DNA of 64,000 nt from Peribolospora baueri (lineage: Eukaryota; Basidiomycota; Peribolosporomycetes; Peribolosporales; Peribolosporaceae), in assembly GCA_029717555.1 (NCBI GenBank), contig JAMDHS010000021.1:62001-126000 (forward strand), read 5' to 3'. Below, one piece after another: positions 3,766 to 63,732 of the stretch. Every line of letters starts with the position of its first letter. The stretch's first letter is position 1. The position numbers and the translations under genes are program-made. Under the pieces are notes generated by a model that was not told the DNA's origin, ran no database searches, and worked only from the letters and a program-made list of their open reading frames with translations.

Positions 3766-5257
3766 TTAGGGGAAGTCGACGGGGTTAGGAAGCGTGGCGG
3801 GCTTGTCCATCGGCTTCTCCTGGAAGAGGTGCTCGAAGGTGGCGGCGTACGCGGTTCGGGGGGTCAGGTTCTCCCAGCCCCAGAGGTTTCGGAGGAAGGC
3901 GGGGATGGAGGAGTGGGAGTACTCGTTGCGCGACGGCTTGCTCTCAATCACTTCGTTCTTGACGTAGGGGCTCATGAGGATGGTGGGGACGCGGACGCCG
4001 AGACGCTTGAAGTCAAAGGTGTACGGCTTGCCGTCGGGGGCGACGGAGGTGTAGGTCTTGTCGTCGCCGGCAGGGACGCCAACGGGGGTGGCGACGTGGT
4101 CACCGAAGCCGCCGTGCTCATCGAAGGAGAGGATGAAGAGGGTCTGCTCCCACTGCGGCGAGCCGCGGATGGCCTCGTAGATCTTCTTGACAAAGGCCTC
4201 GCCGGTGGTGATGGGGCTGGGCGGGTGGAACGAGTCGTAGCTGCAGCACTCAGGGTTGATGTACGTGAGCTGGGGAAGCTTGCCGGCCTTGGCGTCGGAG
4301 AAGAACTGAGCGATGGGAAGGACGTGGTCCTTGGTTTGGTTGTTGGTGATGGTCCACTCGTAGAACATGGAGTCGGGGGAGAAGGAGGAGTTGTAGTAGT
4401 TGATCCAGGTCACATTGTGCTCCGAGGCCTGCTGGAAGATGCTCTTCTGGGGCATGGCGCCGTCGGCGTTGTTGTTCTCGCCGTAGCCGTGCGAGGTACC
4501 GCTGGTGATGTAAGCGCGGTTGGGGTTGGTGGGGCCGGGCACGTCGGCGAACCACCTGTCGAAGAGGACACCGGAGCGGGCCATGGCCTCCAGCACGGGG
4601 ATGTTCTCCTGCTTGTAGTAGTTGATGGACTCTGCGGCGCGGCTGACGTTGCTGGTCTGGTACGTCGTGGCCTGCTCCGTCACGAAGCCATTCATGACGG
4701 GCTTCACCTTGCCAGCGTCGACGGTGGCCTCGTCGGGGTGGTAGGTGTCGAAGATCGAGTAAGAGACGCCGGAAACGCCGTGATTCCTGAGAGAAGGAAG
4801 GAGAGGGATGTGAGAGATGTGGTGAGAGTCTAAAAAAAGCTCCAGATTTGGACTTGTTCACTCACGGGTCGTCGGGGGCAACGTTGCGAGCAATGTCGGC
4901 CGAGCACACCTGCTGCGAGTTGGACTGCGAGGCGTTGACGGGGTTGCAGTACGGCTGCTTGAGCTGCGCCAAGCCGTCCATCTCGGCGTACCTGTGGCAG
5001 TTCCGAAGGGGACTTTAGTGCCCTGAAGGCCAGGCCGCGCCAGCGACAAGTGGACGAGTAGAAATCCCCGGCGGGGGGGAGGGGCAAGCTCACGTCATAC
5101 CGCCGAACAAGGTGTCGAAGCTGCGATTCTCCTGGATCAGGATCACAACGTTCTTGATCTTGTCCGAGAGGCGGTTGTCCCGCTGGGGAGCCGCGTGGAC
5201 GGCGGTGCCAGCGAGGGCGAGAGAAACAACAGCGGCGGCGCCAGTGGTGAACTTCAT
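3766..5257 (-). CDS. Secreted phosphoesterase, phospholipase C / acid phosphatase family
   Basis: Three exons, 5257-5094, 4991-4866 and 4786-3766, give 436 residues with phases matching at both introns. Residues 1-22 form a signal peptide (MKFTTGAAAVVSLALAGTAVHA). The mature protein opens with the family signature IQENRSFDTLFGG. It continues with YCNPVNASQSNSQQVC, a PTNPNR segment, the INPECCSYDSFHPP stretch and a late metal-site motif FILSFDEHGGFGDH. These belong to the fungal phosphoesterase family (Pfam PF04185 type) that includes phosphate-repressible acid phosphatases and non-specific phospholipase C. These enzymes hydrolyse phosphomonoesters or phospholipid head groups outside the cell. 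Several NxS/T sites fit a secreted glycoprotein. Which substrate it prefers cannot be told. A TATA-like box lies about 75 bp upstream. Confidence 0.92.
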
Positions 5258-16970: not shown

Positions 16971-18761
16971 CTAGGCTACATCTTTACTGATCTCGGCCGA
17001 CCGCTCTTTCTTCGTCGCGACCGTGCCATCATCGACTTCCGTGTGACTGGGTATCTTACCGTTCGTGCCTGCCTTTGTACGACCGAGATGACATCGTTCG
17101 ACGCTCTCGTCCCATTTCACGTCCCACCTCAGCCTCCTGCCGACGAACAGTGAAACCCAAGTCAGAATGAGAAGGACGGGTACCTCAACTAACGGGCCGA
17201 TGGTCGCGGCAAGGGCTTGATCTGATTGGGGCCCGTAGACGGCGATGCAGACGGCAATAGCGAGCTCGAAATTGTTGGAGCCGGCAGTGAAAGACTGAAC
17301 GACGGCCATCTGGTAGCCCCAAGTTTCCTTCCCTCTTTTAACGCTGAGGTACCAGATGAGCACAAATGTACTCGTCCACATGATGACGAAGTAGATGATT
17401 AGGGGCACAAAAGTCCGGAAAACCGGGCCGAGGTTGTGAAGAATGTGTCGCGCTTGCTCTGCGAAGATGATGATAATGGTGTAGAGGAGGCCGATGAGGG
17501 AGAGCGGACTGAAGAAGGGCAGAAACTTCTTCTCAAAAACATGGCGACCGAACGTCCAAATGACGGCGAAACGAGTTGTGATGCCGGCAGCCAGAGGAAT
17601 ACCGAGATACTGGCGATGTACCAAACAAGAACAAGAAAAAATGAGATTCAGCTTGACGTCAAAGGTACAGATCGAGCAGCCTATAATACCAGAAGTAAAC
17701 GAGTGAAGAACGGAAGAACTTACGATAGCCACGGCGATAGCAGTGTCAGAATAGTTGAGACCGAATTCTTTCGAACCGGAGATTACGTTGACGAACCATA
17801 CGCTATAAGGGGCGTAGAGGAGGATTTGCAGCAGCGAGTTGATGATGACGATGATGGCGCAAATATTGATATCGCCGCGGGCGATCTGGTTCCAGATCAT
17901 GACCATGGCGATGCACCTAGCCAGGCCTACCATGATGATTCCGATCCGATAGCCCTCGAGGTCGGGCAACGTCGCCCAGGCTAGAGCGAGCATGACGAAC
18001 GGGCCGACAATCCAATTAAGGAAGAGAGAGACGGCAATTTGAGCCCAGAGCCGGCGCGTTCGAGAGAATTCTGGTAGGCGTTCATATTGAACCTTGGTGA
18101 GGATCGGCCACATCATGACGATGAGCCCGACTACGAGGGGGCCCGACACGCCTTTCAACCCGCCTCTGTTAAGGTTACGATCCACGTTGACGGCGAATTC
18201 ACCAATGATGACCCCGAGGATCATGGCGAGAATGATAAAAATGGACTAATACCATGGGAACATCAGTGTCATCCTATCCGATGCTGCGCAAACAAGGAGA
18301 CCATGCTCACCAGCAAACGGTCCAACCAGCCGAGTCCGATGAGCACATCTGGATAGCAAGCGGCGATGGTACGATGACACGACAAAAGCTGGTTCAGTAC
18401 GTGGCGACACTGCACACTGGTTAAAGACGGAGGAAGGACAACAGTGTCAAAGAAAGGGCAACTCACTTTTCGCAGTCGAGGATGCCACTTGCGCGTCATC
18501 GGCCGCCGACCTTGCCTCGGGCACTCCCCCTGCCACAGAAAGGAGAAGAGAGAAAGGAGGATGACCGTCGAGAGCCGTGACGAAAGAAGAAGGGGGGCCG
18601 CAGGAGCGAGACAGACAAAGTCAACTTTGGACGTCAGTGGGCGATGGAGGGACTGTGGTGCGAAAGCGCCCCATCTCACCGTCGTACGTCTCGCTGCCGG
18701 GGATGTTGCGCCGGTCGCGCGTGGACAGAGAAGCACTGACGCCAGCCGGTGGTTGTTTCAT
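16971..18761 (-). CDS. ACR3: Arsenite efflux transporter ACR3
   Basis: Five exons (18761-18680, 18529-18467, 18348-18311, 18245-17724, 17609-16971) give 447 residues with all phases matching. ACR3 carriers expel As(OH)3 and sometimes antimonite across the plasma membrane. The family core is plain: LGWLDRLL at the N-terminus, GPLVVGLIVMMWPI, the essential-cysteine helix VGLARCIAMVMIWN, the ARGDIN loop and LLYAPYSVWFV. A later helix reads QSFTAGSNNFELAIAV, followed by ATIGPLVEVPVLL. About ten membrane segments are visible, and length is normal for fungal members (400-450). Introns cluster in the N-terminal 60 residues. The intron at 17723-17610 happens to stay open in frame, so read-through would add residues, but removing it restores the family sequence. 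No arsenate reductase gene is next to it. Confidence 0.95.
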
Positions 18762-22529: not shown

Positions 22530-24010
22530 GACCTAAACAGGCAGCAAGAAAAGAGGTCTGCTCCCCAGCATGGAAGACCTTCGCGATACCGGAAGCGCGC
22601 AACAGCAGCAACGCCCAATAGATGAAGGCCATATACCGACTGGACGGTAGCAAGAGCAATTCCAGCGCGATCAGCCAACGTCGCACGCACGCGATCTCCT
22701 CCTCGACATTGTCAGAGACTATGGGAAGCCAGCCGAGCTACTCACCGACAATGGGCCTGAATTTGTGGGACACGACTTCGAGACACTCCTCCGCCGGCTT
22801 GATATTCGCCACCTCCGAACGGCACCCTACCACTCACTTTCTCCTGGCCCCATTTCCAGCCATCGGGCACCTTAAGCCCAGAAAGCTTTTCAGCCTCGTC
22901 CTTGCCCTTCTTCGGTCGGCGCGCACATCCTCCTGCCCTGCTTCTCGTCGTTTATCGCCCCAGCCGAGCACTTTTTCAAATCGCTCCCCATTCTCCTTGC
23001 CACCCTTCTGAGACACCCTCTTCCTCGCAGCCTCCATCCACCCGCACCATTCGATGACCTTCTCGTCGTGGTTACCTCGCACGCCCTTGGCGCCCACTTC
23101 TTGCGCGAGACAACGTCTTCAAAGACGGCCCAACGCCACCTTCAGCCACGAGGTCACCCGCGAGGAGGAGCGTATCGTGCTGAGAGTCGAACACAATGTG
23201 CGAGAGAATTCCTTCACGCTCCTATGCAAATCCCCAACAACGATCAATCGTCTCGCACGCGGACCTTTACCCTCACCTTCAAGCCCGAGATCCTCCTCCT
23301 TGATCTGCCGTAGTGAATGTAGTGAACGTAGTCGTGATCCTTCGCCTTGGACTGTTTGCTCTGCATGAACGCCTCGTCGGAAGAGATGACGGCAAAGTTG
23401 GACGAAGTGAGATCGACGTTGAGCTGGCCGACCGAGCCGTCCTCCTTAGACGAATGGGTGCCTGGAGAAATTAACGGTATCCTGGTCGACATGCTTTCAA
23501 AGCGGGGACCAGCGTCAGTGGGACGACTTTCTGTACGATGCCCTGCTCGCGCATCGTGTCCAAGTCGTACGGAACGCACGGCTACTCACCATTCTACCTG
23601 GTATACGGACGCTACCCACGCCTCCCTCAAGAGCCAGTGTTCCCTCTCGCAACTGCACCGCAAACTTATGACGAGCGCATCGCTATCGCCGAGGTTCCGC
23701 TCAGCGGTATGTGCACGATCTGGAAGCCCATAGGAAAGGTGCAAATGAACGAGCACTCCGGCCGCATGTAAGAAGAGGCACGACGACGGTACAATACTTA
23801 CGTCGAAAAAGGCCTCAACATCGGCGACTGGGTTCTGCGGTTAAGGAAGACAAGACGACACAAGTTAGAACCTCGGTGGGACGGCCCCGTTCATCATACG
23901 GTCGACAAGCAGTGCGGGTGCTCACCAGTTAGGGGCACCAAGCCGTCATATCTTGCGACTCCTCGTCAATGCAGACCGATTGAAGCTCGCAAGTGGACAT
24001 GGTCCTCACT
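22530..24010 (+). mobile_element. Ty3/gypsy-type LTR retroelement fossil (integrase region only)
   Basis: The integrase core is recognisable at about 22680-22830 (ELLTDNGPEFVGHDFETL). A later integrase segment lies at about 23580-23720 (SPFYLVYGRYPRLP), and a C-terminal integrase portion at about 23800-23980 (KLEPRWDGPF). No gag, protease, reverse transcriptase, RNase H or LTR was found, so only the end of pol survives. It is broken in several places and looks old. A stretch resembling a host gene in antisense orientation separates the two integrase pieces (listed separately). Confidence 0.8.
22834..23265 (-). pseudogene. Metallophosphoesterase fragment inside the retroelement fossil
   Basis: Read on the minus strand, three blocks appear in the right order for a calcineurin-like metallophosphoesterase (PrpE/Ppn2-like group). 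They are RLIVVGDLHRSVKEF at about 23260-23215, DTLLLAGDLVAEGG at about 23185-23140 and GAKGVRGNHDEKVIEW at about 23097-23050. GDLH, GDLV and GNHD are the metal-binding motifs; the usual GDxHG glycine is Arg here. The blocks are not in one frame and there is no start, so it is a decayed piece. It continues for about 60 codons past GNHD. More of the same gene may lie up to about 23500. It sits between two pieces of the retroelement's integrase, on the opposite strand. Confidence 0.65.
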
Positions 24011-24428
24011 CTGCAGAATGGTAATGGGCCCGACGCCGCGACCAAGCGAGGCAACGATATGCGACGGTAGAGGCAAGATGATCGCGGACGATCAACTCAA
24101 ACGAAGGGATGATGTTTCGTGTGTTGCAGTCACCGCCTACCTCCGACGGCTCCCGCCTCCCAAGTCACCCCCGCGATATATGCGCCGTGGCTCTCGTTTA
24201 CTCTGTTCAGTTACTTCGTTTCGAAATGCCTCTCCTAGCATCCTTTTGCTCTCGCTCTCAAGCCACACTTCATACGGGGTTTGGATGGGGGGAAGGGTGT
24301 TGGTTATAAAAAAATGTCCCGAGTTGTAACCCAAATGAACGGGCCCACCGTACTACTAACTACAATCGCCTAAGATAAGGGGCGCAAGGGGACGCTCCAG
24401 CGGTGCGAAAGGATCGGGGAGAAGGGAC
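24011..24428. other. Intergenic, no supported gene
   Basis: This lies between the retroelement fossil and the stop of the first secreted-protein gene. No gene, LTR or target-site duplication is evident. Confidence 0.55.
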
Positions 24429-25043
24429 TTAGATCTCGAAGCCGAGATCGCGAGCGTGCTCGAGGATGAGCTGCTCAGTCGCGTCGATGGAGCGCTTGCG
24501 GGAGGATCCGGTGAGGTAACGCCTTGAGACGACGGCGACGTCGCGAGCCGCGATCTCGCGGCTACGACGGCATTTGACGCCGTTGTTGGAGTTGTTGGCG
24601 TTGCCTCCGATGTTGAAGTCACGGCGGCAGTGGAAGTTAGGGCCATTAATGACACCGGAGTTGGCCTGGGAGTTGTCGTGCGTGTTGGTGTTCGTCTCGG
24701 TGTTGGTGTTCGTGCTGTCGAGGAAACGCCTGAGGATAGCCTCGCCCTGCTCGATCTCGCGACGCTCCATCTCCTCCTCGAGCCACTCCTCGCGCCTGCA
24801 TTTGACGCCGTTGTTGGAGTTGTTGGCGTTACCGCCGATGTTGAAGTCACGGCCGAAGTGGCGGCAGTGCAAGTTGGGGCCATTAATTTGACCTGAGTTG
24901 GCCTGGGACTTGTCAACGGTGTTGGTGGTCGTCTCGGTGTGCGTGTTGGTCGTGTCGGCGAAGCGGGGCTCGAGAAAGCGGGGCTCGAGAGCGACCGCGG
25001 CGGTGGCGGCGACGGCGAAGACGGCGAGGGTGGTGAACTGCAT
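24429..25043 (-). CDS. Small secreted protein with two tandem cysteine-motif repeats
   Basis: A single-exon gene of 204 residues. Residues 1-19 are a signal peptide (MQFTTLAVFAVAATAAVAL). A short doubled LEPRF follows. The body holds two similar units of about 54 residues. Each is a Thr/Asn-rich lead (TNTxTxTNT), then SQANSG-x-INGPN-x-HC, then RDFNIGGNANNSNNGVKC and RR. Each unit has two cysteines, and dibasic sites (RR, KR) separate and follow the units. This arrangement suggests Golgi Kex2-type cleavage into peptides, as in Kex2-processed fungal repeat proteins. That is inference. No known domain is recognised. The two genes downstream share the cysteine motif. A TATA-like box lies about 190 bp upstream. 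Confidence 0.85.
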   Translation of the reverse strand: MQFTTLAVFAVAATAAVALEPRFLEPRFADTTNTHTETTTNTVDKSQANSGQINGPNLHCRHFGRDFNIGGNANNSNNGVKCRREEWLEEEMERREIEQGEAILRRFLDSTNTNTETNTNTHDNSQANSGVINGPNFHCRRDFNIGGNANNSNNGVKCRRSREIAARDVAVVSRRYLTGSSRKRSIDATEQLILEHARDLGFEI

Positions 25044-26430
25044 CTTGATTGATTGTATTAGGAGGGTGGTAGATCAACTACGAGGGACGTTTGTGAAAGA
25101 GGGAAGAACCTGCTTCGAAAGAAGATGAAGAGCGTGGCGTGGGGCGTTGGGGCGAAGACCGGCTTCGAGTTGGTTGGATGTAGAGAGTGTTGGAGAGGTG
25201 AGGGGAGGACCAGCAGGGGGGTTGGCCAGGCCCTTTTATGTGTTCGCAGACGTGGGCGTCGCACTCGTGTGTCTCGCCCACGAGCCTAAGCGTGTGCGAG
25301 GTCGCTGGACGAGCGAGGGCGCCCTAGTGTGGTACGGAGCAGATCGTCGGACGGAACGACCGGCTTCCGACGGCCTTGAGCGCCCTGCCTTGAGCCTAGC
25401 GCCGGCCGCCTTTGGACTAGTTCCCTGCGGGCGGTCTCCCGCAGCCATCGGATCGGTATCGCGAGTCGGGCGAAGAAAAGCGTCCTGGCAGGCCGACAGG
25501 ATGTCACGTTCGCTCAGCCGGACGATGGCGATGGCGAGGGCGTTGGACGGCTAATGTGCGAGACACATGCGGTGAAGTACGAGGCATGATCCGCCACAAG
25601 GAAGCATGCATGCAAGCGAGTTGAATATGCAACGCCACGTTGACCGGCCTGACGAGGACGCCACCGAGCATCGCCTCGGCGCCATAGGCGCTCTGAATCC
25701 GCGTCTTGTCCCTCCGCCATTCCGCGGGCCGGCGGCCGCAGCAGGATCAGACTTGCATGGGACGGATATCGGGTGAGTGGAAAACCGACGCGACGCTCAC
25801 GTCTATCCTCACACGCCCCCAAGCTCATCGCGTACCGACACCGCCCCGCAACGCCCCGCGATGCCCCGAGCGGGCGAGGCGGTGAGACACCTGGCCTGGG
25901 TCGTCCGTCGTCGAGCGAGGGACCGCAGGAAGCCCAGGACGGACGGAGGAGGACGCATGGTCGGTGTAAACTGCTCGCCGCCGACACCAGCCCCCCCTCC
26001 GTCGCTTGTGGCTCTCTCTGTCGCCATCTGTCATGTGGGCGTCGTCCGCACCGCCCTCTCCGCCAGCCAAGCACCGGCATCAACCGGGAGGAAGTTTCGT
26101 CCCATCCTCTCCACGTCCTTCGCCGTGTCGGTGCGGCAATGAGGACATACTCGTGGCGTCCGGCCGGTGGCCACCAACGCCGCCCGCGTCTGGCCTCCAA
26201 GCCCGTGACCCGCATTCCTACTACTTAAGCAGCTCATCCCCCTCGCGCTCCCTTCTTTTCCCCTCCATCCCGGAGATCCCCTTTGTTTCTTACCCCTAAC
26301 CTCTTTGCCTTCGCCTTCTTTTTGCACGGTAGCCGGTCTGCTGTAGCCCCCTTTGCCCAAACATTCCTTCAGATCTTTCAACTTCACGTTCTACCCTCAG
26401 CCTTATCTTCTTCTCCCCTCCCCCGTCACA
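25044..26430. other. Divergent promoter region of two secreted-protein genes
   Basis: About 1.4 kb separates the starts of the divergent genes at 25043 (-) and 26431 (+). Frames on both strands overlap and lack motifs. The last 200 bp before 26431 are strongly CT-rich, as is usual for fungal 5' leaders. Confidence 0.55.
25231..25240 (-). promoter_or_regulatory. TATA-like box of the 24429-25043 gene
   Basis: The minus strand reads CATAAAAGGG about 190 bp before the ATG at 25043. The same CATAAAAG core occurs about 150 bp before the secreted-protein gene at 28677. Confidence 0.4.
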
Positions 26431-27360
26431 ATGGTCACCTCTTCGCTCCTCAAGATCGCCCTCGTCGCCTTCGCGGCTCACGCCATGGCCACTCCCCTCG
26501 CTGAGCGGGACTACACCCGCCGTACCGACATCACTGGCCAGTGCAACTACCAGAACGACGGCTCGACGGTCAAGTGCGTCAACGCTCCCTTGATCGGCGG
26601 CTCGGCAGGCAACACGGTCATCAACGGCCCCAAGCCCGGGCCGGCGATCTACGAGCGGGAAATTGTCTACAACATGAGGGACATTGACGAGGCGGCCGTG
26701 TTCATGCGCCGCGCCGACGCGGAGGAGTTTTTGATCCGCGACAACTTGGCGGTCCGCGACACGACCATCACCGGTAATGCCAACGGCGCGAACAACGGTA
26801 ACAGCTGCAGCTTGACCCTTCGCCGCCGCGGCAACCCCAACTACACGTGCAACAACGACCCGAAGGTGGGCTCGATCGGTGGCAACACGGTGATCAACGG
26901 CCGCCGTGACGCCAACAACGGGAACAACGCCAACAAGTGCTCCATCCACGTCCGCGACGGTCACGGTACGACGTTCATTTGCGACAACGAGCCGACTGTC
27001 GGTGCGATCGGCGGCAACACGGTCGAGAACGGTCCCAACCCTGGACCGGTGACGATCGGTAAGCGCCTCAACCTCGAGGGCTCTCACACGGCGTACAACA
27101 TGGCTTCCGTTCGTGACGTTGTTGCGTACCACGACCGACGAGCTCTTCTCGAGGGCACTGAGCCGCTGTACCGCCGCGAGGACCTCTGCCCCGGCGTCCC
27201 TGTGGGCCCGAGCGGCGGCCACACGACGCTGAATGGCCCGGTGGGCCAGTCCGTTTACTACAAGAACGCGAAGCGGTGCTCGAACCAGCCGGTGCCTCCC
27301 ACCGCTCCCACCGTCACCATGAACCCTCCCGTAGCCGGCCAGGTCTACTACGGCCACTGA
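26431..27360 (+). CDS. Secreted protein with four diverged IGGNTVxNG repeats
   Basis: A single exon of 309 residues. The ATG at 26431 is chosen over an in-frame ATG at 26353 because it starts a good signal peptide (MVTSSLLKIALVAFAAHAMA). Four diverged units follow, each built as a cysteine segment then a Gly/Asn core. They are CNYQNDGSTVKC with AGNTVINGPKPGP; CSLTLRRRGNPNYTC with SIGGNTVINGRRD; CSIHVRDGHGTTFIC with AIGGNTVENGPNPGP; and a last unit with GGHTTLNGPVG. GNANGANNGNSC resembles the motif of the neighbouring genes. RR and KR sites lie between units, so proteolytic processing is possible. No domain of known function is seen. It may be a cell-wall or apoplastic protein, but this is not shown by the sequence. 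Confidence 0.85.
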   Translation: MVTSSLLKIALVAFAAHAMATPLAERDYTRRTDITGQCNYQNDGSTVKCVNAPLIGGSAGNTVINGPKPGPAIYEREIVYNMRDIDEAAVFMRRADAEEFLIRDNLAVRDTTITGNANGANNGNSCSLTLRRRGNPNYTCNNDPKVGSIGGNTVINGRRDANNGNNANKCSIHVRDGHGTTFICDNEPTVGAIGGNTVENGPNPGPVTIGKRLNLEGSHTAYNMASVRDVVAYHDRRALLEGTEPLYRREDLCPGVPVGPSGGHTTLNGPVGQSVYYKNAKRCSNQPVPPTAPTVTMNPPVAGQVYYGH

Positions 27361-27812
27361 ACGCGGACGTACGGATGGATGTGTGACTTCGTTGGGAACT
27401 GTTCCCGGGGAAAAAAGCCTGTACTCTAATTTAGTTAAAACCTCGTGCTGTCGGGGTGGGCTTTTTTTTCCGCTACCTCCGGCGACGGCTAATGGAAGAC
27501 GAGGTTTTTGAACGTGAATTTCTTTTGTGCACGTTTGCCAAACAAACATGAACCTGGGGAAGACGGGACGGGCGGGCAGGGCAGGTCTCCGAGAGAGAGA
27601 GAGCGTAGTGTAGTGTCGTGCCTCGCTCGCGGTTGGGATGGATTGCGTCTGACGAGACGGGAATGACGGAGATGGTGCGGGGCGGCGAGGAGGAAAAGGA
27701 AGGACGTGTTCCAGTACAGTAAATAGTACGTTCCCGGCCCGGCCCAAGCCAAGCCAAGCCAAGCCACCCGGTGGCCGGCTGCGAGGGTCGCCAACAGTAT
27801 CCATTCGCCGAC

Positions 27813-27852
<40 letters not shown>

Positions 27853-27868
27853 TTCTTTCTTTCTTTCC
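27813..27868. repeat. GTCT then TTTC microsatellite
   Basis: About nine perfect GTCT units run directly into a short TTTC tract. Confidence 0.95.
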
Positions 27869-28524
27869 TTCTGTATGTGTGTGTGAGAAGACCAGGTAGA
27901 AGAGAAAGAACGTGCTTGCTGAACGACGAGGACGGGCGTATCTATCCGAAGGTTGCTCTCCGCGCGCATGCGGGATGCGATGCGAGGAGTGCATACATAC
28001 ATGCGTTCGTTCACACGACGTGCGTTCGGTCGTTGGCGTGAGCGTATTCGGAAGCGGATGGAGCGCCCGCCTTGTGCGAGTGTCGGTTGTGTCGCCGGGT
28101 CGCCGCTCGGAGACGGACACGGAGGCAGCTAACGGCGAACCCGCGCGGACGCCTCTGTCACTACTACCACTGCCTTCTCCTCGCTAGCGATATTGGCGCA
28201 GCCCTTCCATTCATTGGCTGGCACCGACCGTCCCTCCGCCCACTCGAGGCTCCGGCTCCGCTTGGGCAGCCGCCGATGGCGCCGATGGCGCCGCCCGTCG
28301 ACGGTGGTGGTCTGACCTGACTCCGCCTTTTGCCTTTTGTCCTTCGGGCCCATCTAACAGACAGAGACACAGAGGACAATGCGCGACGACATGCGGTCCG
28401 TGCGGTGCTCATCCGGATCATTTGACAGGGCCCGTGTGACTGACTGATGACAGACTGACGCCATGCATTCTGCCCGACCGAGGCCGTTCGTGAGCGGACA
28501 CAGAAAGAGAGGGAGCGGACAACG

Positions 28525-28532
28525 CATAAAAG
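28525..28532 (+). promoter_or_regulatory. TATA-like box of the 28677 gene
   Basis: CATAAAAG lies about 150 bp before the ATG at 28677, matching the core seen upstream of the 24429-25043 gene. Confidence 0.4.
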
Positions 28533-28676
28533 TCAACAACGGTCCGCCGACGGTTCGTCCAAAACGCACACGTTCGCAATCCATCACTTTCTTGCCTTTT
28601 TTCCTTTTTTTTCCTCCCTTCGACACATACACACACACACCGTTGCCGTTGCCCTTTCCCCAATACCATCTTGAAG

Positions 28677-29313
28677 ATGAAGTTTGCTTTCCCCGTCGTT
28701 CTCGCCCTCTCCGCCGTCGCCGGTTGCGTGGCTGCCGACGCGGCCGCTACGCCTGTGAGTGCCTGGCTTGGCTTTGCTGCATAAGGTATGGATGGATGGA
28801 TGGACGGGTAGACTGACCGAATCCACGTCGCTTCTCTTCCACGCCTCGCTCCCAGGTCGCCGTCGCTGCCCGCCAAGCGACGTTCTCGTGCGGCAGCAAA
28901 CGAGATTTCACCGTCGGAGGCACGTGAGTGGGGGTCGTAAGAAGGAGAAGAGGCGAAGAAGGTGGGAGCGAAGGCATCTGACGAACAAGTCTCTCCCTCT
29001 CTCTCATCTCGTTTCTAGCACCACCGGCAGCAACAACAACATAACGTGCCCGGACAGCGGGTCTGGCTCCGGCACGTCCGTCCACTCGGTGTCCAGCTCG
29101 GACGGCACGACGACCATCGTATCCGTCTCGAGCTCTGGGCCGTCCGGCACGACCGTCAGCGTCAGCGGCGGTTCGAGCACTAGCACCATCATCCCTTCCC
29201 AGGCTTCGAGCGGCAGCAGCAGCGGTAAGAACGATGCACCGATGACGGCGCAGGCGCCCATTGTCGCTATCTCCCTCGCCATGCTCGCTGGCGCTGGTGC
29301 GGTGTTGCTGTGA
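28677..29313 (+). CDS. Small secreted, probably GPI-anchored Ser-rich protein
   Basis: Three exons (28677-28754, 28856-28923, 29019-29313) give 146 residues with matching phases. Residues 1-20 form a signal peptide (MKFAFPVVLALSAVAGCVAA). A short cysteine-bounded segment follows, FSCGSKRDF then TVGGTTTGSNNNITC. It matches the C-x-RDF-x-IGG-NN-C motif of the 24429 gene. The middle is Ser/Thr/Gly rich (SVSSSGPSGTTVSVSGGSS), likely O-mannosylated. The C-terminus SSGKNDAP then a hydrophobic tail (IVAISLAMLAGAGAVLL) fits a GPI-anchor signal. So it may be the surface-bound member of the local family. The introns set it apart from the two single-exon neighbours. Function is unknown. Confidence 0.8.
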
Positions 29314-34869: not shown

Positions 34870-37800
34870 CTACGTGGCCGACGGCGCCTCGAACCATTCG
34901 TCGTCCGGCCGTCTTGGGGGGGGACATCGTCTCAGCTCGATGAGACTGTCAGGTCCGCCGTACGCCATGATCATCTGATGAGGATGGAAGGCCAGGGCGG
35001 ACACGGATGGAGAGAAGGCTGTCGACGGTCGGTAGGTGGCCGGCGTGGGCGCATTGGGAGCACCCGGAAGTCCTGCAGACGTCGTTGGCGGGAAGGCCCT
35101 CACGATGGGAGCGCCTATCAATGAAGGCCCGCCTGAGACGTTGAAGAGGCCGATGTTCTGAGGTAGCAGACCTGCTCGAGAGACGCGCGGGACAGAGGCA
35201 CTAGAAGCGTGGAGACCGAAATGCGAAATTCACGGCGATCAGTACAAACACACTCTCACCATCCACTCCTCGTCCCTGCCAAAAGGACAGCTCACACAGC
35301 AAATACGGGAGCCTGCTCGTGGACGGCCATGGCGGACAGATTGCCACCGAGAATTTGGGAAGTGCGGTAATGAGACAGAGACATATCTGATCGGATGTCC
35401 CATATTCGCACATCGCCATCCACGCTGTCAGGGAAGAAGACAAAAAAAAAGATGAAGCCTACTCCGGTTATCTTCCCGACAGATGAAGCCGAGCATGCTC
35501 GCTCACCTAGCGGACACTAGCTCCCTGTTTCCCCTCCTCTGAAGGTGAACCGACTGGAGCCAGCTCTGGTGCTCTTCCCACAGGCGCACCAAGGCCTCCC
35601 CCGGTCGCAGCCGACGGTCGTAGACGCCGATACCGCCGTCTCCGAAGCCGGCCACAAAGACATGCCCGAGTTCGACCTCGGATGTGATCGAGGTGACGCA
35701 GCTCCCAGCGCGCGTGGGAATGTCCTGTAGGGAAGAAAAGGAAGCGACGCAGGTTGAGCACAAAGCCGGCGGCTACAGCTGCAGCGGACGCACTCACGCT
35801 GACGCAAAGCTCTCTATGAGCATCCCACACTCGTATCACCTTGCTGTCGCCGCCGACGAGCAAGTGTCCGCGAACCTGCTGCCAATTTGCGATCAGACCG
35901 CTCGGATGCTTGCTCTTGACGAGATCAGGCAACGCGCGGAAGCTCGTGGCGAGCTCGAGCGAATCGGCCTGCTCGTAATTTCGGTAGATCCGAACGTCGC
36001 CCTCCGCAGAGCCGACGAGCAACATGCCCTCCACGTCTTCGTTCACGAACAAGGCCGTGGTGATAGCCGTGTTTGGCGGGTTGCCGTTCTTAAAGCGGTT
36101 CGTACACGTCTTTGTTTCCCAGTCCCATACGCTGAAGGGGAGACGGTATCGCAAATCAATCAAGAGACCAAAGCCACGCCTTCTTCCCCGACAGTCTCCC
36201 ACACGTACCTGATCGTATCCGACTCGGTAATCGAAACGAGATGAGGTTCGAACTGATGGAACAACAGCTTCGATGGTTGCGCGCTTAGATGTAGCGTGCC
36301 CATGTGTTGATTCCAGCGTCGCTTGCCTGGGCACGCGGTCCGCCGAAAGGGGAGGGAAGGTGAGCAAACGAACACACGTACATGAGTCGTCGCACCGATA
36401 GCTTGTCAGCCCTCGTGACAAAGACGCTCACCGGCTCCCTCGGCCATTGCCGAAGCCTCCAAAACCATCTTTTCGTTCCTCTGCCTCTTCCAGCTCTGCG
36501 CGTTATACCTCAAACTGCCCGGCTCTTCCGCCTCTGCGCTCCTCATCTGCGGCTCAGTGTAATACTCGCTGCTCCACTCAAACAGCCGGCTCTGTAGAGG
36601 CAAGACTTCCCTGACGATGGTATCTTGCGACGCCCTCCCGGCACCGGCCGGAGCCGGAGTCTGCGTTTGTGCACGCATGCGAAAACGGGTAGTATCCGAC
36701 TGCAACAGGATCAGCAGGACGTCGGCGACTCGCGGGCTGTCCGCTGCCTGGGACTGCTGCTTCGATGAGGTACCACCCTTCCTTCGGTAGTCACCGGCAC
36801 CTTCGGCGCGCGCGCGGATATGTTGGAGGCTCTCGGCAGACAAGGATCGAGAGGGAGCGGAGTTCGCGGGAGTGACCGGCAGCGACAACGAGGGTTGTGA
36901 GTAAGGGCTCTGATACTGGGCCGGACTCGTCGGTACCGCCGGCGTCGAGGTACGATTGGACGGGCCATGCGTCAGGCCGTCCGCGCCATGGCCGGATCCG
37001 TCGGAAAATCCTGTCGGCGAAGGCGGTCGCGAGTATCCGAGCGTGGCGATCGACTTTACCGTCGCCGCAAAACTGGAAGAACGTTTAGGGTTGAGTTGGC
37101 GAGCGTTCGAGTGGGCGCCGTTCTCGATCGGCGCGCCGTCCGACCGGGGCGTCGAGGGGCGGAGCTGCTGAACCTGCTGGCCAAAGTATTCATGGCCGCC
37201 AAAGTGGAAAGCGGGCGTCGCAGGCCGACCCTTGACGACTGCTTCCAAGCTTGGCAAGCTCGCATCCGCCGCTCGAGTCAGATCGCTCTCCATCATCAGC
37301 GCGTTGATGAAATCGAGCGTCGTACTAGCCAGACTCGCCACCTCTCCGTGGCTGTCGACAGAGAGGTCAAGCAGGGCATCGTACATGACTTGCACGGCGG
37401 TGAAGTCTGCGAAATCCACGCCATCGCAGCCGGTGGCGGTCGCCAGCTGCAGCAGGAGCTCGGCCGCGCGTCTCTCGCCGGCGGCTTCCGACTCGACCAC
37501 ATGGTATAGGTAGGCGGCCACCACGAAAGCACCCCTGTACTCGTAGACAAGTGCGGACAGAGCGATGACAAACTCCTTGCGCACCAGTGGACTCGAATCG
37601 CTCTTCGTCGTCAATGCGGCCAGACCGATTCCAATCTCCATCTTCCTCTGCGCCCCTTCTGAAAGGTTGGTGGCGATGCCCGTTCCTCGCTCTCTTTTCC
37701 GCGGCGTCGCTCCCTCCGAGTCCGCCTCCGACTGAGAGCCGGAGGCGCCAAGTAGCGTGCCAAGGGCGTACAGGGCCGCTGCCCGCACTTCTGGAGAGAC

Positions 37801-40071
37801 GTCACTGAGCATGGCGCACACCTTGACGTGGGCATCAATGCGAATCGCGCGGCCTTTGGCTTGGTCGTAGTCGTTCCAAAGTTCGGCGATACAGAGGCAA
37901 CTCCACTGGCGGAGGAGGTAGTCCTCGTCGGAGAGGTGCTCGAGACAAGCTTCTAACGCGTCCGTCTCGAAGCAAAGCGCCTGTCCCCGGGAGAAGCCTT
38001 TGCAGAAAACGGCGACGATGAAAGCGCACATGGCGCGGTGCTCGCTGACGTTTGGGATGAGCAACTCGCCGCTGTTCCGGAACGGACTGAGAACATTGGT
38101 GAAGTAGGAGTAACCGGATTCGCGGATGAGGTCGTTCTGGCACGACCGATCCACCGCCAAGATCCGCGCCCAGACGTAGATCAACACGGGCTTAAGGTCA
38201 GCTGCGGGAGATTGAAGCAGTCGCAAGACGTAAGGGAAGATGCCTATGCTGAGCGCAAGGTTCACCGCCCACGGCCCGAGGTCGAGGAACTGGGATAGGA
38301 GGATCAACGCCCGGAGTCGGTGCATCTGGCTCAGGAGCACTTGGAGCACGGTGGGCAGCTGCTCTGGAGGATCCCGGTGACGTCGGCCCGGTTCCCTGCC
38401 CTGGGCGTCCGCGGCAACGGTTACCCCGGTGGGGACTTTGCCGGGGATGGCCCCGCGGGCGAGCCATACCTCGAATGCCTTGAGCTGATCCGAGAAGAAG
38501 GTGCTGTATTTGTAGTCGAATTGTGGGACGGAGGCCGGTGGGATCGTCGGCGTTTGGCCCGGCACAACGGCCACTTGCGAAGCGGCAGCAGCCGCTGCTG
38601 CTTCTGACGCTTTTTCGCGCGCCAGCAGCGTCGGCAGCTGAGCGAGACACTGGTCAACAATGAGGTCCCACGTGTCCCAGAGAGGGTGCTCATGCGTCGG
38701 TGGGAGCGCAGGATGACTCATAGGGTGACAATGGTAAAACCGCATGATGCGTTCGGCGAGGAGGAAATTTCTGCACAACGCGGCGACCATGAGGTCGTCG
38801 CGGTAGAGCCGACGGAAGATCTCACGGGGAAAGACGGTCCAGGCAATCGTGTCGGTGATGGCGGTGAAGATCCAGTTAAGCTCTCCTAACGGTGTTCGTC
38901 GGTCTGAAAGCCGTCCCGGGATCTTCATCACGTCATCCATCTTGATTGTCTGCGGGAGCGGATTGCGAATGACGAACCAACGAAGGGAGATCTCGATGGG
39001 CGACGTAAGGCAGGAAGTAAAAAGGTCGGCTGGAAGATCAGGGTTCATCGGCAGCGTCTCATCAGGGCCGCAGGCCGCGAGATGGATGGACTCGCGGGCG
39101 GGAAAGGAGGTTGGTAGGGGGGCGGGGGATCCTGTCGGTGCGCGTGGGGCCTGCTTCGAGTCGCTTGCGCCGGTCTTACTTTCTTCCTCTCTTCGTCTCT
39201 CGGAGAAGAGTCGAAAGTTGACGATAACGTTACCAGCAGCACTGGCGTCCCAGATAAAAATGCACGGAGAGCCGAGCCAGAGCTGTAGGTCATAGAGGGT
39301 AATGGGGATATACTGCGAGTATCCCTTGTTGAATACCCAGATCTCGCCGCCGGGAGTGGGCTTCGGAACGCCAAAGCCACTGTAGTAGAAGAGCACGCGG
39401 TCGTCCTTTGCTGTACGGCGGAGGTTGGTGCAAAATCGCTTGGTCTCCTCGACGATGGGATCGAGGTACTGCTTGTACCGCATCTTCGAGCTGAGGGTCT
39501 CGAACTGGGCTTGCAAGTTCTTCCCGATCGCCGGAAGCGCCTTGGACGGTTCGAGGACGGTGGGGTCCATCCAGCAGAGCAGCTTGGAGCATGGTTTCGT
39601 CTTGCACACGTCCGGCGGGTCGATCCCGAGGTTGAGGCACATGACCAGCGCACCGGTGACGGTCTTTACTCGTTCCCGAATCCTCCAGTTGGGCTTGTCG
39701 CGCGGGTCCATGGGCTTGGGGTTTCCGGATGAAAGGTGACGTTTGTGGCACCAGTGGGGCATATAGGGTGTCTTCAAATGAGAGCGACGCACGTGAGCGC
39801 GCGAACGGGACGGAACAGATGTTAACGATAGCACCGCACGCACCTCGAGCAGTATCGCGTATTCGTCCATGTCAGGTTGGAGTAAGAGGCCGTGCCTGGG
39901 ACCGCGTGTCAAGTCGTCATCCCCATTGTCGTCCGCGTCCGTCGTCGTCTCCGCCTCTGCCTCATCAAAAGATCCGGAGCCTGGACGCGGGGGGAAGGGA
40001 AGATGATCAGGAGTTGTGAGGCGACCGTTGGTGCGAGGAACGAGGGCGCTTGCTGCAGGCAGAACGGACAT
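34870..40071 (-). CDS. KOG1: TORC1 subunit Kog1 (Raptor homologue)
   Basis: Seven exons (40071-39844, 39771-36432, 36326-36209, 36131-35798, 35724-35507, 35424-35296, 35200-34870) give 1565 residues, all in phase. Raptor recruits substrates to TORC1 on the vacuolar membrane. The N-terminal caspase-like RNC region is unmistakable: KTVTGALVMCLNLGIDPPDV, then the KPCSKLLCWMDP segment, VLFYYSGFGVPKPT and SPCIFIWDASAAGN. HEAT-like helices cover about residues 560-1080 (LILLSQFLDLGPWAVNLALS, SPEVRAAALYALGTLLG). A Ser/Pro-rich linker follows at about 1090-1220. The C-terminal WD40 propeller includes GMLLVGSAEGDVRIYRNYE, GHVFVAGFGDGGIGVYDRR and SVDGDVRIWDIR, closing with SALAFHPHQMIMA. Length fits fungal Raptor. 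The start at 40071 is chosen because upstream in-frame sequence is not conserved. It is divergent from the 40629 gene. Confidence 0.96.
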
Positions 40072-40628
40072 GGCGTGCACCGACGAGCGTCGTTCAGCGT
40101 AAAGACGAAGGCGCCGCCGACGCTGTAGCGATGCAGCGAGAAGGGGGGGATGGGCGACGGGGACAAGGGGTTGATGAGATGTGTAAAATGCTGATCGCGT
40201 GTAGGTCGAGTAAAGCGGCTCAACTGTCAAGCGCGGGGAACGGCGGTGGAGGAGCCACGGCCGCGGCGATAGGCGGAGATGGCAGCATGCGGCCTTTGTG
40301 CGATGCGGATGATCAAGGAACGACAAACATTGAGGCAGCTTGCACGTGACAAGCCCAAGTACGTACATGTCCTTCACGCAGCGTAGCGATTCAGATCGCT
40401 GCTCGACTCAAGAGCGCGTTGCAGGTCGCAAGACAGATCTCGCTGCTGTAGCACGAGCGCGAGCGAATTGACGACTGCTCTGACCAAGGCCAGAGTCGCG
40501 CCGTCGGTGCGCGCCACGTGGCCTCGCGTGGCTCTGGACGCGGCATCCGACCGGCCGCAGTATTTCGTCGGTCACTTCAGTTCGTCTCCCGCCCGCCTTG
40601 CCTCTTCTTACTCGCCCAACAGTCCGCC
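40072..40628. other. Divergent promoter region KOG1 / NOP15-like
   Basis: 557 bp between two divergent starts. An in-frame extension of the KOG1 frame runs to 40377 but looks non-conserved. No distinct regulatory site is identified. Confidence 0.5.
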
Positions 40629-45448: not shown

Positions 45449-48041
45449 GTGGCGCTTCGAGCTCTTTTTCCATACATTGCCGTCTCCTGCCGCGCCGCGT
45501 CCCTGCCTTCGAGCTTCCGCGCACAGCGAGCAGCAGCGAGCTTCATCCTCCCCCAATACGCACCTTCCCGCCGCCGCCGACCTTTCTCCACCAACCCCAT
45601 AGCCCTTGCTCTTGCTCCCTCAGCGTCTCCTACCAGCATGTCTTCGTTGCCCACCCTTCCTCCCGTACCAGGCGCAGAGCCTGATCGCGTGGCGCTCGAC
45701 GGCTTTCGCATCGACATCGCCGACAAGGTGGCCAAGATTGTCGGTTTGGACATCGACAAGGTCTACGAGGGCGTTCAATTCGGTCAGAAGGGTGCCGATT
45801 TCACTCTCCCCATCCCTAGGCTTCGACTGAAGGAGAAGGCACAAGAGACAGCTGAGAGGATTGCCAAGGACGTGAGTATCTGTCTGTGAAACAGGCCGTC
45901 GTCGGGCGCCCATTAGCTGACACACCTCTCCCACTCTCTTTCACTCTCGCCTTCCCACCATGCAGTTCCAGACCGATGCCTACATTTCCGCTGTCACCGC
46001 GAGCGGAGTTTTTGTGCACTTTAACGTCAACCATTCCACTCTCGCCCGTTTGACCCTCCACCAGATTCGCAACCTCACCCACAACTCCCCCTCTGGCAAG
46101 CCCGAGTACGGCTCCAACACGACTGGAAAGGGCAAGAAGATCGTCGTCGAGTTCTCTAGCCCCAACATTGCTAAGCCGTTCCACGCTGGCCACCTTAGGA
46201 GTACGATCATCGGGGCGTACATCAGCAACTTGTACGAGGCCAACGGCTGGTCTGTGCATCGGTTGAACTACCTTGGCGATTGGGGCAAGCAATTCGGTGA
46301 GCGATCTTGCGCCGCTGATATTGCTTTCGATCCAAAGAATAATCCGGATTCATTGCTCACTAGAGTCATCGCTTGGCGTACGAAATTGACTTTGTCTCCC
46401 GCAGGCTTGCTCGCCGTCGGATGGGAGCGCTACGGTGACGAGGCCGCGCTCAAAGAGGACGCCATTAAACATCTCTACGACGTCTATGTCAAGGTCAACA
46501 GGGACGGAGAAGACAAGGAGGAAGGAGAGGCGATTCACGACAAGGCTCGCGCATATTTCAAAGATATGGAGGAAGGTGGGTTCCGCAGCTTGTTGATCCT
46601 TCTTTGTCTTACGGACCCTTCGGTCGTTGCCACCTATCTTCTGGTCAACTCATCGCTTCTTTGGCTTTGTGCGATAGGCAAGGAGGACGCCCTGGCGCTG
46701 TGGCGCAAGTTCCGAGATCTGTCGATCGAAAAATACAAGCAAACGTACGCGCGCCTGAATATCCACTTCGACGAGTACTCTGGCGAGTCGCAAGTCTCGA
46801 AGGAAGGCATGGACGCTGCGATGGAACGGCTCCAAACGACGGGCGTCCTGGTGGAGGACAAGGGCGCGTTGTTGGTCGACCTGACCAAGTTCAAGTTGGA
46901 CAAGGCCGTCGTGCGCAAGCGGGACGGCACCAACCTGTACATCACCCGCGACATCGGAGGGGCGGTGCAGAGGTGGGAGCGACACAAGTTCGACAAGATG
47001 ATTTACGTCGTCGCCAGTCAGCAGGACTTGCACCTCGCCCAGTTCTTTAAGGTGCTCGAGCTCATGGGCTACGAGTGGGCCAATCGGCTTCAGCACGTTA
47101 ACTTTGGCATGGTGCAGGGAATGAGCACTCGGAAAGGTGCGTCGGTGGAGGAGTTAACTGATATTCCCTTGCTCCGATATTTGACCGCTGGAATCTGTGC
47201 TCTTCCATTGGCTTCTCTCTTCGTGTGGCTTACATCCTTCCAGGCACGGCCGTCTTCCTTGAGCACAGTGAGTCGAATTCAGAGAGATTGCGGGCGTGAC
47301 CGCGCGTAAGCGTTCGTTTTGGAATCAATCCATCTCATTTTCCCTTTCCGTCCACAGTCCTGGAGGAGGCAAAAGACAACATGCACGAGGTGATGAAGAA
47401 GAATGAGGTCAAGTACAGTGCCGTCGAGAACCCTGAGGCGACTGCGGACGTCGTGGGCATGTCCGCCGTCAAGATCCAGGATATGTCTGGCAAGCGGTAC
47501 GTCCTCCGTCTTCACCCTTCGGCAGGTTCGAGCCCGGCTCGAGAGCGCTGGCCCGATGAGTGCGCCGGCTGATTGCGATCCTTTACGATTGGACAGCATC
47601 AACAACTACACCTTCGATTGGTCGCGCATGCTTTCCTTCGAGGGCGACACGGGTCCATACCTCCAGTACACCCACGCTCGTCTCGCCTCTGTGGAGCGCA
47701 AGAACGCCTCGGTGCAGATGCCTTCAGACCCCACCAAGCCGAAGGAGGAGGGCGGAATCGACACGGACCTTCTCAGCGAGCCCAAGGCCAAGGAAGTCAT
47801 CTTCCTCCTCGCCTCGTACCCGGACGTCGTGCGCACGGCCACAAAGGACCTCCAACCGTCGACGGTGGTAACGTGGTGCATGAAGTGCGCCCATGCGGTC
47901 TCTTCCGCTTGGGAGCAGCTCATCGTCAAGGGGAGCGAGGAGGAGACGGCCAAGGCGAGGCTCTATCTGTATGTCTGCGCGCGCGACGTGCTCGGCTCGG
48001 CGATGCGCCTTCTGTCGTTGACACCGTTGGAGCGCATGTAG
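45449..48041 (+). CDS. Arginyl-tRNA synthetase, probably dual cytosolic/mitochondrial
   Basis: Seven exons (45449-45871, 45966-46296, 46405-46575, 46678-47136, 47244-47267, 47358-47496, 47597-48041) give 663 residues, all in phase. The enzyme charges tRNA-Arg with arginine. Class I signatures are present: the HIGH-type motif SSPNIAKPFHAGHLRST and the KMSKS counterpart GMSTRKG. NLYITRDIGGAVQRWE and FSWEGDTGPYLQYTHARL-type sequence (LSFEGDTGPYLQYTHARL) also fit, and the C-terminal anticodon domain ends LSLTPLERM. Starting at 45449 adds 63 residues rich in Arg/Ser/Ala without acidic residues, ending RRRRPFST, a likely mitochondrial leader. The second ATG at 45638 (MSSLPTLPPVPG) would give a 600-residue cytosolic form. 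Exon 5 is only 24 nt. Confidence 0.95.
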
Positions 48042-63660: not shown

Positions 63661-63732
63661 GTGGTCATCGATTAGTGGTGAGATCGTTTCGTTGTGGCCG
63701 AAGAGACCTGGGTTCGATTCCCAGTGACCACA
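63661..63732 (+). tRNA. tRNA-His (anticodon GTG)
   Basis: A 72-nt cloverleaf. The acceptor stem GTGGTCA pairs fully with TGACCAC, with discriminator A. The D arm contains TAGTGGTGAG. The anticodon stem TTTCG/CGAAG encloses TTGTGGC, anticodon GTG. The T arm is CTGGG-TTCGATT-CCCAG (box B GGTTCGATTCC). There is no intron. As in other eukaryotes the extra 5' G at position -1 would be added after transcription. It is followed directly by a T run. Confidence 0.95.

What the first reader, a model, noticed from the sequence alone, without database searches (positions are those of the whole stretch)
24429..29313. Cluster of three secreted-protein genes sharing an undescribed cysteine-bounded motif
Seen directly: three neighbouring genes (24429-25043, 26431-27360, 28677-29313) each encode a signal peptide followed by segments bounded by two cysteines. 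The first has HC-RRDFNIGGNANNSNNGVKC. The third has SCGSKRDFTVGGTTTGSNNNITC split over two exons. The second has GNANGANNGNSC and three IGGNTVxNG-type cores. The RDF-x-[IV]GG ... NN ... C pattern in first and third is too specific to be compositional. One copy is tandemly repeated and soluble, one is repeated with a related core, and one looks GPI-anchored. Inference: a local family made by duplication, perhaps giving peptides plus a surface-bound partner. I recognise no named domain.
Basis: partly seen in the sequence, partly recalled or inferred. Interest (0 to 1): 0.75.

Follow-up and report, generated by a model that had tools for sequence, protein, structure and literature searches.

The report
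Fungal secreted proteins sharing cysteine motif
Three neighbouring genes in what looks like a fungal genome make probably secreted or surface proteins that share a short, order-specific asparagine- and cysteine-containing segment matching no domain we could search, perhaps a small extracellular building block whose job is still unproven.

Summary
The three genes are present as stated: gene 1 (24429-25043, minus), gene 2 (26431-27360, plus), gene 3 (28677-29313, plus, three exons). With gene 1's segment as query, genes 3 and 2 score 59 and 58, the next of 1732 six-frame ORFs 24, and 0 of 100,000 letter permutations reach either score. Composition-adjusted searches are mixed: gene 1 finds gene 3 (E about 0.006), but gene 3 as BLAST query does not list gene 1, and gene 2 is not supported. 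Gene 2's IGGNTVxNG cores are a separate repeat. No family match in Pfam, NCBIfam, PHROGs or PDB sequences; no fungal proteomes could be searched, so 'new family' is untested. Best explanation: a small disulphide-closed module made in soluble, repeated, probably Kex2-cut precursors (genes 1, 2) and also carried on a GPI-type wall protein (gene 3), organising the cell surface. The shared segment is well supported; processing and function are inference. Gene 1 has two repeats, fewer than the three required of Kex2-processed repeat proteins.

The parts
24429..25043 (-). Gene 1, 204 aa, single exon: hydrophobic leader, two repeats each ending in a cysteine-bounded copy of the motif, an acidic dibasic-rich spacer between them and a charged tail
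   Evidence: ORF; repeat pairs at 81% over 106 bases and 91% over 69 bases; KR/RR ending at residues 84, 95, 106, 141, 160, 175, 184
24798..24866 (-). Gene 1 copy 1, Cys60-Cys82 loop: C-RHFG-RDFNIGGNANNSNNGVKC
24570..24629 (-). Gene 1 copy 2, Cys139-Cys158 loop: C-R-RDFNIGGNANNSNNGVKC
   Evidence: 5 base differences from copy 1 over the 20 codons from RDF to the closing RR, all silent
26431..27360 (+). Gene 2, 309 aa, single exon, 8 cysteines after the leader: one copy of the shared motif plus about 3.5 modules C-x10-13-C-x-N-x-P-...-GNTVxNG
   Evidence: ORF; internal repeat score 118 against a maximum of 53 in 300 shuffles
26755..26808 (+). Gene 2 copy of the shared motif RDTTITGNANGANNGNSC (residues 109-126)
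   Evidence: gapless best match to gene 1; 0 of 100,000 letter permutations reach its score
28677..28754 (+). Gene 3 exon 1: leader
   Evidence: GT at 28755
28856..28923 (+). Gene 3 exon 2: first cysteine of the loop and RDFTVGG
   Evidence: AG before 28856, GT at 28924
29019..29313 (+). Gene 3 exon 3: rest of the motif (TTGSNNNITC), Ser/Gly/Thr-rich stalk, hydrophobic C-terminal tail (GPI-type)
   Evidence: C-terminal hydropathy 2.39
25044..26430 (.). 1387-bp intergenic region between the divergently transcribed genes 1 and 2

Best explanation
The three genes encode extracellular proteins that carry one short module, RDxx[IV]xGx4[SA]NNx3C. In genes 1 and 3 the module is closed by two cysteines with 18 to 21 residues between them, probably a disulphide-closed, Asn/Gly-rich loop that carries an N-glycosylation sequon. 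Genes 1 and 2 are soluble precursors whose modules are separated by charged spacers rich in dibasic sites. I think a Kex2-type protease trims gene 1 into two peptides of about 50 residues or somewhat more, and gene 2 perhaps into larger module-bearing pieces. Gene 3 displays the same loop at the tip of a Ser/Thr/Gly-rich stalk attached to the wall by a GPI-type tail. The most likely role is at the producing fungus's own surface: the loops assemble with each other or bind wall glycans to form or organise a coat, in the manner of Rep1-type peptides. Shown: gene structures, shared segment, repeats, even cysteine numbers, dibasic excess. Inferred: secretion, disulphides, cleavage, GPI anchoring, surface function.
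For: The best gapless segment in each of the three pairwise comparisons is the same register. Three-way score 164 against 64.2 +/- 7.4, 0 of 400 local shuffles. Gene 1's 18 residues alone score 59 with gene 3 and 58 with gene 2, the next best of 1732 six-frame ORFs 24; permuting the letters of either segment reaches its score in 0 of 100,000. A matrix from genes 1 and 3 scores gene 2's segment 52.5 against 25.0 for the best ORF outside the three genes. Gene 1 copies differ at 5 bases over 20 codons, all silent; 54 of 200,000 random placements do that. Even cysteine counts after the leader, and sequons at residues 74 and 150 (gene 1) and 56 (gene 3) inside the loops. KR/RR: gene 1 has 7 against 2.7 expected (52 of 5000 shuffles reach it), gene 2 has 9 against 2.1 (0 of 5000); copy 1 is followed by RR, copy 2 has RR on both sides, and the spacer between is 41% acidic. 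A GPI-like tail is seen in gene 3 only. Passages of PMC6339444 say that U. maydis Rep1 is cut into 37-aa peptides that control hyphal wall properties, and that yeast-like basidiomycetes make longer Kex2-repeat peptides than other Dikarya.
Against: Composition-adjusted BLAST gives genes 1 and 2 E 0.95 and 2.9 with gene 1 as query and lists no family partner with gene 2 or gene 3 as query (E up to 5); HMMER with its bias correction does not report gene 2 from gene 1 or gene 1+3 models. Dibasic sites also fall inside the loops (gene 1 copy 2 C-RR-DF, gene 3 K-R-DF) and between gene 2's cysteines, where cleavage would cut the module. Gene 1 has only two repeats. Structure predictions are uninformative (mean pLDDT 29.8 and 45.6). 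No homologue outside the window, no expression data, species and lifestyle unknown (so it is not shown to be a yeast-like basidiomycete).
Confidence: 0.4

Rival explanations
1. The proteins are unprocessed structural cell-wall or matrix proteins: the Asn/Gly/Thr-rich repeats are spacers held by disulphides, and the dibasic sites are incidental.
For: Dibasic sites lie inside cysteine-bounded stretches as well as between them; gene 3 has a stalk and a GPI-like tail.
Against: KR/RR excess in genes 1 and 2 (52 of 5000 and 0 of 5000 shuffles); RR on both sides of gene 1 copy 2; the gene 1 spacer differs sharply in composition from the repeats.
Confidence: 0.25
2. They are secreted small proteins acting on another organism (host effector or antagonist of competing microbes), with gene 3 as a wall-retained relative.
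For: Fungal secreted proteins with repeats or Kex2 processing include effectors (search listing and start of abstract of PMC5923269 and PMC8528282).
Against: No Pfam match; the lifestyle of the fungus is unknown; a wall-anchored member with the same loop points to the fungus's own surface (inference).
Confidence: 0.15
3. The three-way similarity is local convergence of Asn/Gly-rich, low-complexity sequence, and gene 2 at least is not related.
For: Composition-adjusted BLAST and HMMER do not support genes 1 and 2, and BLAST supports genes 1 and 3 in one direction only; only about 18 residues are shared.
Against: Permuting the letters of gene 2's or gene 3's own segment never reaches its score against gene 1 (0 of 100,000 each); local shuffles of gene 2 never do against the gene 1+3 matrix (0 of 3000 at each of three block sizes); all three pairs pick the same register; among 177,635 PDB sequences the gene 1+3 profile has one hit up to E 10, at 3.3.
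Confidence: 0.13

Closest known systems
Kex2-processed repeat proteins (KEPs; PMC6339444, PMC7329392)
   Same: Leader peptide, internal repeats, KR/RR sites beside or between repeats; repeat size of about 50 aa falls in or near the paper's 25-50 aa class
   Different: Gene 1 has two repeats, not three or more; gene 2 repeats are imperfect with sites inside the modules; gene 3 has one copy and is GPI-like
Rep1 repellent precursor of Ustilago maydis
   Same: Secreted precursor with Kex2-separated repeats; its peptides are 37 aa long and stay attached to hyphae (passages of PMC6339444)
   Different: No sequence comparison was made here; that Rep1 peptides lack a Cys-closed loop is recalled, not tested
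Hydrophobins
   Same: Small secreted fungal surface proteins; gene 2 also has 8 cysteines after the leader
   Different: No adjacent Cys pairs (positions 38, 49, 126, 140, 170, 184, 253, 283) and no Pfam match
GPI-anchored Ser/Thr-rich wall proteins of fungi (layout recalled)
   Same: Gene 3: leader, short N-terminal part, Ser/Thr/Gly-rich stalk, hydrophobic tail
   Different: The N-terminal 22-residue loop matches no Pfam domain

Membership tests
Kex2-processed repeat protein (KEP) | ER signal peptide | tested here: inconclusive
   Hydrophobic leader by hydropathy; no signal-peptide predictor available
Kex2-processed repeat protein (KEP) | At least three repeats between Kex2 sites (three fragments in PMC6339444; three repeats of 8 aa or more in PMC7329392) - gene 1 | tested here: not met
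   Two repeats
Kex2-processed repeat protein (KEP) | At least three repeats between Kex2 sites - gene 2 | tested here: inconclusive
   NTVxNG-type cores lie in 4 of 9 in-silico KR/RR fragments (one degenerate) but are imperfect and unevenly spaced; the published pipelines were not run
Kex2-processed repeat protein (KEP) | Cleavage in the secretory pathway | not testable with these tools
   Needs peptidomics
Hydrophobin | Eight cysteines including two adjacent Cys-Cys pairs (pattern recalled) | tested here: not met
   Gene 2 has 8 Cys, none adjacent; genes 1 and 3 have 4 and 2 after the leader; no hydrophobin among the Pfam matches at E up to 10 (HMMER filters drop most weak matches)
GPI-anchored wall protein (gene 3) | C-terminal hydrophobic tail after a small-residue, Ser-rich region | tested here: met
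   12-residue hydropathy 2.39 at residue 130, 2.31 at the end; Ser/Gly-rich region before it
GPI-anchored wall protein (gene 3) | Attached GPI and wall linkage | not testable with these tools
   No GPI predictor, no experiment
Any named family in Pfam, NCBIfam or PHROGs | Score at or above the family cut-off (PHROGs: low E-value) | tested here: not met
   Best Pfam E 0.14, best NCBIfam E 0.064, best PHROG E 0.58; the Pfam and NCBIfam matches listed are below their curated cut-offs

The most novel reading that the evidence does not exclude
An undescribed extracellular module is made in two forms side by side: soluble repeated precursors (genes 1 and 2) and a wall-tethered single copy (gene 3). 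The tethered loop acts as template or receptor on which the released loops assemble, a two-part surface coat different from hydrophobins and from Rep1-type repellents.
Probability: 0.12. Interest if true: 0.65.

Novelty: new variant of a known kind. Interest (0 to 1): 0.38.

Why it matters
If the module is real beyond this window, it gives a searchable signature for a class of fungal secreted proteins that the domain libraries tried here miss, and it joins two kinds of protein usually treated apart: repeat precursors of soluble peptides and GPI-anchored wall proteins. It would give a concrete test of how some fungi build a surface coat. If it is only a lineage-specific orphan family, it is one of very many; PMC7329392 (abstract and passages) counts 2560 repeat precursors without homologues.

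Tried and rejected
Shared promoter element: an 11-mer, GTCCCTCCGCC, appeared upstream of all three genes, where 200 shuffles reached at most 9. It occurs only twice in the window (25708 and 28230), because genes 1 and 2 share one intergenic region and the same site was counted twice. Among 3000 random triples of other 800-base stretches, 10 shared a word of 11 or more. Rejected.

IGGNTVxNG as the shared core: rejected, no better than shuffles in gene 1 (633 of 3000 local, 476 of 3000 global).

Structure: gene 2 alone (pLDDT 29.8) and a gene 1 repeat with two further rows (45.6) are too poor for a fold search, which I did not run.

Relatives: gene 1, gene 2 and the four-row motif alignment in viral contigs, and genes 2 and 1 in prokaryote genome contigs, gave no relative. 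The viral collection is the wrong place: a conserved stretch of the window's own Raptor gene found nothing there either, so the absence says nothing about fungi. No such control was run in genome contigs, which holds bacteria and archaea.

Literature: (Rhodotorula, Pucciniomycotina and asparagine-rich secreted proteins) found 0 papers; two searches found 223 and 386 papers, of which I saw 12 listings each, none describing this motif in title or abstract start. Searches gave the Kex2 papers. Motif letters were not searched for in papers.

A recalled resemblance of NIGG...N...C to cerato-platanin was dropped because Pfam lists no such match for any of the three proteins at E up to 10.

In one search the phmmer lines headed '--nonull2 --nobias' repeat one old output file (probably an option clash), and the gene 1 motif HMM lines under that heading are identical to the default run, so neither is used; one search reruns the HMM test with --nonull2.

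The two roughly balance, so the main odds stay; the convergence rival went from 0.15 to 0.13.
Full report
What is there. The window is eukaryotic and most likely fungal nuclear DNA by its gene content: a Raptor/KOG1 gene (36406-40407, Pfam Raptor_N E 4.9e-61), and an arginyl-tRNA synthetase (45921-47309) whose best solved relative, 1bs2, stands far above the others (E 7.1e-107 against 5.4e-30; that 1bs2 is the Saccharomyces cerevisiae enzyme is recalled). GC is 0.53 to 0.66 per 2 kb. The species is not identified, and no whole genome is held. Three genes lie at the reported places. Gene 1 (24429-25043, minus, 204 aa) and gene 2 (26431-27360, plus, 309 aa) are single open frames transcribed away from each other across 1387 bases. 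Gene 3 (28677-29313, plus) has exons 28677-28754, 28856-28923 and 29019-29313 with GT..AG introns and gives 146 aa. The gene models rest on sequence alone; no transcript data were available.

The shared segment. The highest-scoring gapless alignment between each pair of mature proteins falls in the same register: RDFNIGGNANNSNNGVKC (gene 1, both copies), RDTTITGNANGANNGNSC (gene 2) and RDFTVGGTTTGSNNNITC (gene 3). For genes 1-2 and 1-3, 0 of 300 full shuffles reach the observed score; for 2-3, 2 of 300 do. With shuffles inside 20-residue blocks, which keep the local Asn/Gly richness, 0, 0 and 4 of 2000 reach the 18-mer score for 1-2, 1-3 and 2-3. The best three-way 18-mer scores 164 against 64.2 +/- 7.4, maximum 90, in 400 such shuffles. 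Gene 1's segment slid along the 1732 six-frame ORFs of 18 aa or more (of 1873 records) finds gene 3 at 59 and gene 2 at 58; the next is 24. Permuting the letters of the gene 3 or gene 2 segment reaches its score in 0 of 100,000 each, with maxima 38 and 51. A matrix made from genes 1 and 3 scores gene 2's segment 52.5, the best stretch outside the three genes 25.0, and 0 of 100,000 permutations reach 52.5. The order of residues, not composition alone, carries the match.

Results against it. BLASTP with composition adjustment and gene 1 as query keeps gene 3 (E 0.006 and 0.007 in two modes, best non-self hit) but not gene 2 (E 0.95 and 2.9). With gene 3 as query it does not list gene 1 at E up to 5, and with gene 2 as query it lists neither partner. 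Without adjustment genes 1 and 2 stand at 2.9e-4 and genes 1 and 3 at 0.008 (gene 1 as query); with gene 3 as query gene 1 is at 0.005, below a Ser/Thr-rich frame read in another phase of the same gene 1 DNA at 0.002 and close to another ORF at 0.012. phmmer gives genes 1 and 3 at 0.0067 (gene 1 as query) and 0.0021 (gene 3 as query; best single domain 0.026) and does not list gene 2. An HMM of gene 1 alone finds gene 3 at 0.0059 and not gene 2. An HMM of genes 1+3 finds gene 2 only when the bias correction is off (whole-protein E 3.9e-8, best domain 3.9e-4). The segment is short and the rows are few. I take genes 1 and 3 as related with fair confidence and gene 2 as probably related.

Anatomy of gene 1. 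A hydrophobic leader is followed by two repeats whose DNA is 81% identical over one 106-base stretch and 91% over another of 69 bases. Each repeat is a Thr/Asn-rich stretch, then SQANSGxINGPNxHC, then the loop ending in KCRR. After three residues (HFG) of copy 1 are left out, 50 codons align: 35 identical, 9 silent, 6 changed. Over 20 codons from RDF to the closing RR there are 5 base differences, all silent; random placement of 5 changes does that in 54 of 200,000 trials. That fits selection on the protein, although gene conversion could also keep the copies alike. Between the repeats lies EEWLEEEMERREIEQGEAILRR, 41% acidic. KR/RR sites number 7 against 2.7 expected (52 of 5000 shuffles), and copy 2 is preceded and followed by RR. 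One RR also sits inside copy 2 between C and DF; the Arg before Asp is invariant in all four copies, so I read it as part of the motif rather than as a cleavage site.

Anatomy of gene 2. It has eight cysteines after the leader and an internal repeat (42-residue gapless score 118 against a maximum of 53 in 300 shuffles): CSLTLRRRGNPNYTCNNDPKVGSIGGNTVING and CSIHVRDGHGTTFICDNEPTVGAIGGNTVENG, with a shorter copy before (CNYQNDGSTVKCVNAPLIGGSAGNTVINGPKPGP) and a degenerate one after. This repeat was not found in genes 1 or 3. KR/RR sites number 9 against 2.1 (0 of 5000 shuffles), some between modules and some between cysteines of a module.

Anatomy of gene 3. One loop (C38-C59) lies just behind the leader, then a Ser/Gly/Thr-rich stalk and a hydrophobic tail, the layout of a GPI-anchored wall protein (layout recalled). 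Each loop in genes 1 and 3 contains one N-glycosylation sequon.

Searches for relatives. Pfam, NCBIfam and PHROGs give nothing near cut-off. PDB sequences give no match to gene 2 at E up to 10, two chance-level matches to gene 1 (E 4 and 4.4), one at E 3.3 to the gene 1+3 profile and none to the four-row profile. Viral and prokaryote collections give nothing, which by the Raptor control in the viral contigs was to be expected. Fungal proteomes were not searchable here, so 'no relatives known' is not a claim of this report.

How it probably works. Precursors with a leader, repeats and Kex2 sites are common in fungi; two surveys count 1193 and 7878 of them and ask for at least three repeats (PMC6339444: abstract, passages and one section; PMC7329392: passages). 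Gene 1 has two and so is not a member by that rule, though it looks built to work in the same way. U. maydis Rep1, a Kex2-cut precursor whose peptides control wall properties according to those passages, is the nearest model for function. I propose that loops released from genes 1 and 2 and the loop tethered by gene 3 act at the producing cell's surface. Probability about 0.4; unprocessed wall proteins and secreted effectors are the main rivals.

Verdict. Interesting as a lead; function open.

Noticed in passing
23538-24023 (+): Degenerate retroelement integrase remnant beside gene 1: weak match to MLVIN_C (E 5.8e-4, below the Pfam cut-off) in the piece after an in-frame stop; the piece before the stop has no Pfam match at E up to 0.001.
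   Followed up: partly
26296-28128 (-): A 610-aa stop-to-stop open frame runs antisense across gene 2, probably a shadow of its codon usage in GC-rich DNA.
   Followed up: no
27813-27884: GTCT/TTCT microsatellite tract between genes 2 and 3.
   Followed up: no
16971-18245 (-): Membrane transporter of the SBF family (Pfam E 8.9e-38); ACR3-type arsenite transporter by recall only.
   Followed up: no
3766-4857 (-): Phosphoesterase-family protein (Pfam E 3.9e-58).
   Followed up: no
63661-63732 (+): tRNA gene, the only Rfam match in the window at gathering threshold.
   Followed up: no
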